DNA of 64,000 nt from Thermoleophilia bacterium (GTDB lineage: Bacteria; Actinomycetota; Thermoleophilia; Solirubrobacterales; 70-9). Below the pieces are notes generated by a model. That model saw only the letters and a list, made by a program, of their open reading frames with translations, was not told the origin of the DNA and did not search any database. The position numbers and the translations under genes are program-made. This document shows, in pieces, positions 52,213-54,212 of this stretch (the stretch's first letter is position 1; each line of letters opens with the position of its first letter). The stretch spans positions 1 through 64,000 of the forward strand of contig JAENWT010000001.1 in NCBI GenBank assembly GCA_016650125.1, given 5' to 3'.

Positions 52213-52279
52213 CACCATCGAAGTCGCACAGCGAAACTGACCTTTCATCCTGCTGAGCGAAGCGACTTCGATGCCTTAT
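52213..52279. repeat. 67-nt palindromic element, copy 1, containing a TAA stop
   Basis: Arms 52216-52227 and 52262-52273 form a 12-bp stem. The element overlaps the 3' end of the SIP gene and provides its TAA stop (52276-52278, read on the minus strand). It is nearly identical in length and sequence to the copy at 53187-53253. Confidence 0.85.
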
Positions 52280-53118
52280 TCGGAAACGTCTAGCTCCGCT
52301 AGACGTTTCCACTCCGGCTTGTCTTCCCGCCAGCCTTCTTCCGTGCGCGAGTATTTCCAGTAGCCGGTGGCCGATAGCGATTGACGGGGGACATCGCGTT
52401 CGAGGACCAGGTGCTTTCGAACCTCACGGACCATCCCGGCTTCGCCGTGGACGAAGGCGTGGACTTCGCCGTCGGGAAACTCGAGCCCGGCGATCGCGGC
52501 CGGGATCCGGCTGCTTTCGCGGGAGCCTTCGCCGCGGTGGAGCCAGCTGAGGCGGAGGTCGCCCGGACTTGCCAGTGGCACTTCCCCGCCTTCGTCGTCG
52601 ACTTCGAGGAAGACGTGGACCGGAACTCCTTCCGGGATCCGTCCGAGCGCCACGGCGATCGCCGGGATCACCGCTTCGTCGCCTGCCAGCAGGTGCCATC
52701 CGGCCTCTGGAGAGGGCGCGTAGTCGCCGCCGGGACCGACCATCTGGAGCAGGTCGCCCGGCCGGGCGTTCGCTGCCCAGGGGCCGGCCAGTCCGGTGTC
52801 GCCGTGGTGGACGAAGTCGATCGTCAGGTGATTTGCCTCGGGATCCCAGTCGCGGACGGTGAAGGTCCGCTGGCGGAACCACGACTCCTTCGGCCGGCTC
52901 GACTTGATCTCACCGGGGTCGAAAGGTGCCTCGTAATCAGCCCCCGGCGGCGGGAACTGCAGCTTCACATAATGGTCGGCGAACTCCCCTGCGGGGAAGC
53001 CGCGCAGGTCGTCACCGGTGACCACGACCCGGATCAGATGCGGGGTGAGATCCCGGGTTTCGACGACCTCGGTCAGGATCGGGGGCCTGCCGGGGCGGGG
53101 TTTTTCATCTGATGACAT
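52276..53118 (-). CDS. Siderophore-interacting protein (FAD ferric reductase)
   Basis: The 280-residue protein reduces ferric siderophores with NAD(P)H and FAD. The N-terminal FAD domain contains LRGFPAGEFADHYVKLQFPP and RQRTFTVRDWDPEANHLTIDFVHHGDTGLAGPWA; the SIP C-terminal domain has LLAGDEAVIPAIAVALGRIP and the terminal GYWKYSRTEEGWREDKPEWKRL. These are classic SIP motifs. No siderophore gene is adjacent. Its stop codon lies inside a 67-nt palindromic element. Confidence 0.92.
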   Translation of the reverse strand: MSSDEKPRPGRPPILTEVVETRDLTPHLIRVVVTGDDLRGFPAGEFADHYVKLQFPPPGADYEAPFDPGEIKSSRPKESWFRQRTFTVRDWDPEANHLTIDFVHHGDTGLAGPWAANARPGDLLQMVGPGGDYAPSPEAGWHLLAGDEAVIPAIAVALGRIPEGVPVHVFLEVDDEGGEVPLASPGDLRLSWLHRGEGSRESSRIPAAIAGLEFPDGEVHAFVHGEAGMVREVRKHLVLERDVPRQSLSATGYWKYSRTEEGWREDKPEWKRLAELDVSE

Positions 53119-53186
53119 CTTCCGGCCACTCTACGAGACAAGCATCACCGGCCCTACGCGTGGGGAGCGGTAGGTCAGCAGTTCAT

Positions 53187-53253
53187 CACCATCCAAGTCG
53201 CACAGCGAAACCATCCTTTATCCCTCATGAGCGAAGCGACTTGGATGCCTTAT
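53187..53253. repeat. 67-nt palindromic element, copy 2, containing a TAA stop
   Basis: Arms 53190-53201 and 53236-53247 form the same 12-bp stem as copy 1, except that one G-C pair has become C-G. The TAA (53250-53252) is the stop of the next minus-strand gene. Confidence 0.85.
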
Positions 53254-54212
53254 CTATGGATGCCGCCGGTCTGGACCGCTTCGAACGCGCGTCCCGGAAC
53301 CGTCTTCAGCTGGTCGAGCACGTCGTCGTTCCAGCGCCGGTCGGGAGTGCCGCTGATGTACCAGTCGGACCCGTTGTCGGCCACGATCAGGCCGTAAATC
53401 TTCAGGGCCTTCATGATTGCCAGGGTCTGGCCGGAGAAGCGGCCGAGCCGGTAGCCGGCTTTCAGGCGCAGCCGCAAGCCCATCGGCGGCAGTGACCGGT
53501 CGTTCGAGGACGACGCGAAGTGTCGTGCCGGGTGGATGTATCCGCGCTGCGATTCGGAGACGGTCACCCGCAGGACGTGGGTGATCCGGCCGCTCGAGGC
53601 TTCGTCGGCCCGGGCCAGCCCGGGCATGATCGGCAGCCCGGCGGCGTCGGCGCTGGTCCAGCCGGCGGGGCGCAGCTTGTTCGAGCGCAGGTCGAAGCGG
53701 GCGCCGGAGTCGGCCAGCCAGCGGCCCTTGCCGCGCTGGGCGCGATAGAGCTCGTAGAGCTTGCAGCTGCCGCGCTGCAGGGCGATGACGTGATTGTCGG
53801 AACCACCTTCGATCCGGGTGTCGAGCGGAATCGGGTAGGGACCACGATCGCTCTCCGACCCATAAGCGGTGAACCTGACCGGGAACTTCTTCTGCTTCTT
53901 GCCGACGACCCGGAAGGGGATTCCGTAGTTGCCGTACTGGCCGGATCCGAAGTCGGCGTGGAGGTTGGTCCCGGGACCGATCGAGCTGATGTACTGGCTC
54001 GAGCGCGGATGGACCGGCGCGTCGGAGATGTCCCGGTTGAACGCGTTCGATCGCGGCAGGACGGGGCAACCGGCCAGCTTGGTGCCGGGGCCGGGCTTGC
54101 CAGTGGCCTTCGAGGTTGTCGCTCCGCGCGAAATCGTGGAGGCCGAGGCGACCGCGGCGCCGGCCAGCAGCAGGATCGCAAACAGCGCGAGGCTCGACCG
54201 GCGCGTGGTCAC
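53250..54212 (-). CDS. Conserved secreted protein of unknown function
   Basis: I chose GTG 54210-54212, which opens a signal peptide (RRSSLALFAILLLAGAAVASAS); the longer frame upstream has no homology. The 320-residue protein contains FNRDISDAPVHPRSSQYI, IPLDTRIEGGSDNHVIALQRGSCKLYELYRA, RITHVLRVTVSESQRGYIHPARHFASSS and LKIYGLIVADNGSDWYISGTPDRRWNDDVL, blocks of a widespread actinobacterial secreted family that I recognise but cannot name. A catalytic role is not apparent. Its stop lies inside a palindromic element. Confidence 0.7.
   Translation of the reverse strand: MTTRRSSLALFAILLLAGAAVASASTISRGATTSKATGKPGPGTKLAGCPVLPRSNAFNRDISDAPVHPRSSQYISSIGPGTNLHADFGSGQYGNYGIPFRVVGKKQKKFPVRFTAYGSESDRGPYPIPLDTRIEGGSDNHVIALQRGSCKLYELYRAQRGKGRWLADSGARFDLRSNKLRPAGWTSADAAGLPIMPGLARADEASSGRITHVLRVTVSESQRGYIHPARHFASSSNDRSLPPMGLRLRLKAGYRLGRFSGQTLAIMKALKIYGLIVADNGSDWYISGTPDRRWNDDVLDQLKTVPGRAFEAVQTGGIHR

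What the first reader, a model, noticed from the sequence alone, without database searches (positions are those of the whole stretch)
52213..53253. Paired stop-codon-embedding palindromic elements with a compensatory pair change
Two 67-nt elements of identical length and orientation sit 974 bp apart. Each carries the TAA stop of the adjacent minus-strand gene at the same internal position. The 12-bp stem differs by one position, changed from G-C to C-G, so pairing is preserved although the loop has diverged. This pattern fits a selected RNA or DNA structure: a REP-like mobile palindrome that inserts at gene ends, or a structured 3' UTR element controlling termination or mRNA stability.
Basis: partly seen in the sequence, partly recalled or inferred. 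Interest (0 to 1): 0.75.

Follow-up and report, generated by a model that had tools for sequence, protein, structure and literature searches.

The report
Gene-end hairpin repeats, genus-specific
The two hairpins are members of an apparently undescribed family of short palindromic repeats scattered through one genus of actinobacteria, in this genome usually sitting right at the stop codon of a gene; they resemble the REP elements of E. coli but fail the tests for membership in the known REP classes.

Summary
Window 52213-52281(-) and 53187-53255(-) each hold an 8-nt leader with the host gene's TAA, a 12-bp stem and a 34-nt loop; one stem pair is swapped G-C to C-G. They are not a private local duplication: this 2.83-Mb genome has 11 copies, the genus (apparently GTDB '67-14', Solirubrobacterales) 44 in 10 of 18 genomes, and 399 genomes of the class almost nothing elsewhere. 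On 34 copies, 11 of 12 stem pairs show compensatory changes, while loop motifs TTCGCT and TCGCTGT are nearly invariant. In this genome 9 of 11 stems start within 15 nt after a same-strand stop codon (P about 2e-7); genus-wide 36 of 41 follow a sense gene. Orthologous sites are mostly empty, so the family disperses. No REP transposase in any carrier, no GTAG/CGTC tag, no Rfam match. At rpsF a canonical terminator lies downstream, so the element is not that gene's terminator. Best reading: a non-autonomous REP-like palindrome, transcribed as a gene-end hairpin that probably acts on the mRNA as E. coli REPs do. That action is inferred, and replication template switching could explain part of the covariation. 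New variant of a known kind.

The parts
52213..52281 (-). Copy a of the element (leader + hairpin), at the end of the SIP/FAD-binding gene 52276-53118
   Evidence: CM match 91 bits, E 1e-21
52274..52281 (-). 5' leader GAATAAGG carrying the gene's TAA stop (52276-52278)
   Evidence: leader GAAYAAGG recurs with a sharp 5' edge in many copies
52262..52273 (-). 5' arm of the 12-bp stem, copy a
   Evidence: I12
52228..52261 (-). 34-nt loop of copy a with conserved TTCGCTC (52255-52261) and TTTCGCTGT (52228-52236)
52216..52227 (-). 3' arm of the 12-bp stem, copy a
   Evidence: I12
53187..53255 (-). Copy b of the element, at the end of gene 53250-54212
   Evidence: CM match 91 bits, E 1.2e-21
53248..53255 (-). 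5' leader AGATAAGG carrying the TAA stop (53250-53252) of gene 53250-54212
   Evidence: orthologues end IHR-stop at the same residue without the element
53236..53247 (-). 5' arm of the 12-bp stem, copy b
   Evidence: I14
53202..53235 (-). 34-nt loop of copy b
53190..53201 (-). 3' arm of the 12-bp stem, copy b
   Evidence: I14
52276..53118 (-). Host gene of copy a: siderophore-interacting protein family (PF08021, PF04954); lies downstream of copy b
53250..54212 (-). Host gene of copy b: conserved in the genus, no Pfam match

Best explanation
The two hairpins belong to a genus-restricted, non-autonomous, REP-like family of short palindromic elements. Shown: 44 copies in 10 of 18 genomes; a leader GAAYAAGG with a sharp 5' edge; a stem of about 12 bp whose sequence changes freely but stays paired; a loop with nearly invariant TTCGCT and TCGCTGT; orthologous sites empty in most species; sense orientation to the upstream gene; in this genome, position at the stop codon. 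Inferred: copies spread by a transposase or other mechanism that is absent or unrecognised in these genomes. A copy that lands at a gene end is tolerated because its leader, or the junction, restores a stop codon at the old reading-frame end. It is then transcribed as the first 3'-UTR hairpin of that mRNA, where it would hinder 3'-to-5' exonucleases and can slow the terminating ribosome, as described for E. coli REPs within 15 nt of a stop codon (PMC12306157, citing earlier work). Selection for that hairpin, template switching in replication, or both keep the stem paired.
For: Copy number and range: (12 of 399 class genomes match, 9 of them in the genus; the other three have one weak match each, E 2.7e-4 to 7.1e-4). 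Covariation: 11 of 12 pairs, 76 cells, 0 of 500 shuffles, slid controls far lower; own genome alone 7 of 12 pairs. Orthologous pairs at ubiB (G000/G006) and secA (G015/G010) show compensatory changes at one site. Loop motifs 1.6-2.0 bits against a stem mean of 1.23. Stop adjacency 9 of 11 in this genome; leaving out copy i, 8 of 10, P 2.4e-7. Sense orientation 36 of 41, P 4e-7. Empty sites at copies a, b, recR and rpsF with the protein end kept. Half copies and a 3 x 86-nt tandem array in G002 after lysS. [quoted passage not shown]
Against: No mobilising enzyme identified; Y1_Tnp only in G003, which has no copies. No target duplication or recent polymorphism could be shown, because species in the genus are distant (gene A 59-67% identical). 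Stop adjacency is weak outside this genome for the short forms (6 of 22 overall), and only one of eleven copies in G004 comes within 20 nt. No expression data. Strong unrelated hairpins also sit 0-19 nt after stops in this window, so the position may be a general feature of gene ends here.
Confidence: 0.62

Rival explanations
1. A cis-acting 3'-UTR regulatory RNA that is selected first and foremost: a protein or the ribosome recognises the TTCGCT/TCGCTGT loop and the hairpin regulates the gene it follows; its spread is a by-product.
For: Strong covariation with nearly invariant loop motifs, sense bias and short distance from the stop, compensatory changes at orthologous sites.
Against: Host genes share no evident pathway (by their sequence: recR, lpdA, rpsF, secA, lysS, purH, ubiB, SIP) and differ between species; most orthologous sites are empty; eight genus members have no good copy.
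Confidence: 0.2
2. Neutral palindromes, spread long ago, whose pairing is kept by DNA template switching (quasipalindrome correction) and not by selection.
For: Template switching is known to make and repair hairpin stems with compensatory double changes (PMC8794818). Copy a directly follows a perfect 13-bp palindrome, and half copies occur.
Against: Loop motifs outside the stem are more conserved than the stem; sense orientation and stop distance are not random.
Confidence: 0.12
3. An intrinsic transcription terminator cassette copied to gene ends.
For: Position after stop codons, several copies between convergent genes.
Against: No T run after the stem and no terminator-like call there; 34-nt loop; at rpsF a canonical GGGGGCGAG-TTTT-CGCCCCC terminator lies downstream of the element and is kept in genomes without it.
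Confidence: 0.05
4. The two copies are one local duplication or a chance palindrome.
For: They lie 974 bp apart in the same orientation.
Against: Eleven copies in the genome; copy a is closer to copy f on another contig.
Confidence: 0.01

Closest known systems
REP elements, GTAG and CGTC superfamilies (PMC3733652)
   Same: Short palindromes, dispersed, downstream of coding regions, termini that can supply a stop codon; CGTC REPs also lack a dedicated transposase.
   Different: No GTAG or CGTC tag; 12-bp stem with a 34-nt (or about 13-nt) loop holding an invariant motif, against loops of 2-20 or 4-5 nt; no head-to-head dimers seen; 11 copies in this genome; the phyla listed there do not include Actinobacteria.
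E. coli REPs within 15 nt of a stop codon (translation-linked; summarised in PMC12306157)
   Same: Hairpin 1-13 nt after the stop codon of the upstream gene.
   Different: Unrelated sequence; the effect on translation is not tested here.
Mycobacterial interspersed repetitive units (from own knowledge: thought to have inserted at stop/start junctions, same direction as the genes)
   Same: Actinobacterial, stop-codon junctions, sense orientation, tandem array in one case.
   Different: MIRUs carry a short ORF and are not simple hairpins; the original paper was not in the library, so this comparison is a lead only.
Small bacterial MITE-like repeats (NEMIS, RUP, RPE, CIR; PMC2229807)
   Same: Non-autonomous, palindromic, mostly intergenic, some acting at RNA level.
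   Different: Those are larger (about 100-200 bp), most with terminal inverted repeats and target duplications; neither is shown here.

Membership tests
GTAG/CGTC REP superfamilies | Unpaired GTAG or CGTC tag at one end of the stem | tested here: not met
   Leader consensus GAAYAAGG; 3' side GGTG, TTCG or CGCG
GTAG/CGTC REP superfamilies | Loop of 2-20 (GTAG) or 4-5 nt (CGTC) | tested here: not met
   34 nt in long forms, the window copies included; the short forms (about 13 nt) would fall in the GTAG range
GTAG/CGTC REP superfamilies | Small dispersed palindrome, mainly downstream of coding regions | tested here: met
REP/RAYT system | REP-associated tyrosine transposase (Y1_Tnp) in the genome | tested here: not met
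   PF01797 absent from G000 and from every carrier; only in G003, without copies; the control search rings in 5 named genomes. Draft genomes, so a missed gene is possible
Intrinsic terminator | G+C-rich hairpin with a short loop followed by a T run | tested here: not met
Rfam families | Match to a described RNA family | tested here: not met
   No match up to E 1 over 10 loci
MITE | Target-site duplication, and terminal inverted repeats shared with an autonomous IS | tested here: inconclusive
   No target duplication could be read from distant empty sites; isolated stem arms beside a transposase not searched exhaustively
Translation-linked REPs of E. coli | Hairpin at most 15 nt after a stop codon | tested here: met
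   9 of 11 copies in this genome
Translation-linked REPs of E. coli | Ribosome stalling and lower expression of the upstream gene | not testable with these tools
   Needs an experiment

The most novel reading that the evidence does not exclude
A small mobile palindrome that is directed to stop codons by a process linked to translation termination or to the mRNA 3' end, so that it enters at the stop codon, in sense orientation, and restores the reading-frame end with its own stop.
Probability: 0.07. Interest if true: 0.75.

Novelty: new variant of a known kind. Interest (0 to 1): 0.4.

Why it matters
It extends REP-like gene-end palindromes to Solirubrobacterales with a clear sequence-plus-structure family that has no known transposase and does not belong to the GTAG or CGTC classes. 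Because sites differ between species while the host proteins keep their ends, it offers natural filled/empty pairs (gene B, recR, rpsF, ubiB) for asking whether a hairpin next to a stop codon changes mRNA stability or translation.

Tried and rejected
RAYT as mobiliser: PF01797 absent from carriers. Integron attC: considered because of the hairpin at gene ends, dropped because the loop and not the outer core is conserved; intI was not searched. Terminator: rejected for rpsF and for the window. A rule that copies insert just behind another hairpin: only two clear cases of 42 (G000a, G004i), so not general. Occurrence in viruses: a pattern scan of viral contigs gave none. Papers: nothing on palindromic repeats in Solirubrobacterales was found; the original MIRU paper is not held.

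Full report
What is there. On the minus strand, window 52213-52281 and 53187-53255 each read leader - stem - loop - stem: GAATAAGG (AGATAAGG in copy b), a perfect 12-bp stem, a 34-nt loop, and GTG after the stem. The TAA in the leader is the stop codon of the gene just upstream: a siderophore-interacting FAD-binding protein (52276-53118, PF08021/PF04954) for copy a, and a conserved protein without a Pfam match (53250-54212) for copy b. Start-to-start distance is 974; the stems differ by one G-C to C-G swap.

More than two copies. A DNA search and a covariance model found 11 copies on six contigs of the 2.83-Mb genome. Copy a is 93% identical to copy f on another contig and 83% to its neighbour b, so the pair is not a simple local duplication. 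At E 0.001 or better the refined model lists 44 copies in 10 of 18 genomes of the genus (two further genomes have only one weak hit each). In a draw of 399 genomes of the class, 9 of the 12 genomes with a match at E 0.001 or better are in the genus; the other three have one weak match each, E 2.7e-4 to 7.1e-4. No Rfam family matches. The genus seems to be GTDB '67-14': a contig of Solirubrobacterales bacterium 67-14 (MKST01000010.1, 58,673 bp) holds a copy and has the same length as G009 contig C10, which also holds one; this identification is an inference.

Anatomy. Two main loop forms exist: long (TTCGCT - about 21 nt - TTCGCT, total about 69 nt) and short (TTCGCTTCGCT, 48 nt); a few copies have a single TTCGCT (43 nt). 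The leader GAAYAAGG has a sharp 5' edge, with different bases before it in different copies. In G004 six copies, together with one in this genome, share a longer tail with a second hairpin whose pairs also covary (4 of 8 pairs changed on both sides). G002 carries three tandem 86-nt units after lysS.

Structure is kept. On 34 aligned copies 11 of 12 stem pairs show changes on both sides (76 cells; 0 of 500 shuffles; slid controls far lower). That alignment was fitted to the stem, which inflates the count, but the nine own-genome copies in a MAFFT alignment give 7 of 12. At orthologous sites, ubiB in G000 and G006 and secA in G015 and G010, the stems also differ by paired changes. The loop motifs TTCGCT and TCGCTGT carry 1.6-2.0 bits per position against a stem mean of 1.23, which points to a sequence-specific part beside the stem. 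Template switching can also produce compensatory changes without selection (PMC8794818), so covariation alone does not prove an RNA function.

Position. With a simple codon-model gene caller of my own, 9 of 11 copies in this genome have the stem starting 1-13 nt after the stop codon of a same-strand gene; one more is at 27 nt with a half copy in between; the last (copy c) is antisense and lies 5 nt from the stop of the opposite gene. Placement in the same intergenic gaps gives about 5-18% for most copies; leaving out copy i, whose gap allows nothing else, 8 of 10 gives P 2.4e-7 (for copy k, whose gap gave no usable value, I set the window-wide 0.04). Genus-wide 36 of 41 copies follow a sense gene (P 4e-7). 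Stop adjacency is clear for long forms (12 of 20 within 15 nt, and in G009a the called gene runs into the hairpin) and weak for short forms (6 of 22), nearly absent in G004. Unrelated strong hairpins in this window also often start 0-19 nt after stops, so the element may simply occupy the usual place of a gene-end hairpin in this compact genome.

Dispersal. Orthologues of the copy-b gene in G012, G013 and G015 end at the same residue (IHR-stop) with no element; those of the copy-a gene end within a few residues of the same place, with no element. recR ends at the same residue or one earlier in most of its relatives, without the element. rpsF carries it in G006 and G001, an apparent remnant in G015 and nothing in the others. 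ubiB carries it in G000 and G006 only, two genomes that appear to fall in different halves of the genus by UbiB identity, so either independent arrival or repeated loss. The copies replace or abut the stop with little or no change of the protein end. No REP-associated tyrosine transposase occurs in any carrier, so what moved them is unknown.

Function. A canonical terminator lies downstream of the rpsF copies and is conserved in close relatives where the element is absent, and no T run follows the window hairpins, so termination is unlikely. The best-supported functional reading is by analogy: REPs lie mainly downstream of coding regions and are plausibly transcribed, GTAG REP ends often supply a TAG stop (PMC3733652), and E. 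coli REPs less than 16 nt from a stop reduce translation (PMC12306157). Nothing here tests that effect.

Verdict. A real family of REP-like palindromes, undescribed in what I could search, failing the tag, loop and transposase tests of the known REP classes: a new variant of a known kind, of moderate interest.

Noticed in passing
window 52282-52310: A perfect 13-bp palindrome with a 3-nt loop lies in the last codons of the copy-a host gene and ends exactly where the element begins; G004i (L088) shows a similar 12-bp palindrome abutting its element.
   Followed up: partly
L093 2174-2393: Three tandem 86-nt units, each with the hairpin, directly after the lysS stop codon in genus member G002.
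   Followed up: partly
L043, L048, L054, L057, L089, L090, L031: A longer composite version: a shared tail with a second hairpin (8-bp stem, 38-nt loop with TCCACCGCCTTCGGCGCTGGA) that also shows paired changes.
   Followed up: partly
L026 about 1478-1500; also L048, L089: Half elements (leader plus 5' arm, or arm plus loop motif) directly upstream of full copies, as if nested or slipped.
   Followed up: no
L078 (G003:C204:3639-3971): The only Y1 transposase found in the genus sits in a genome that has no copy of the element.
   Followed up: no
window gene ends, e.g. 1786(-), 21338(+), 44446(+): Other strong hairpins start 3-13 nt after stop codons in this window, suggesting that stop-adjacent hairpins are common in this genome.
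   Followed up: partly
opposite strand of the loop motif, e.g. window 52255-52267 (+): The complementary strand of the loop motif reads GAGCGAAGC, and GCGAAGCGAAGC in short forms, resembling the unusually stable d(GCGAAGC) mini-hairpin (own knowledge).
   Followed up: no
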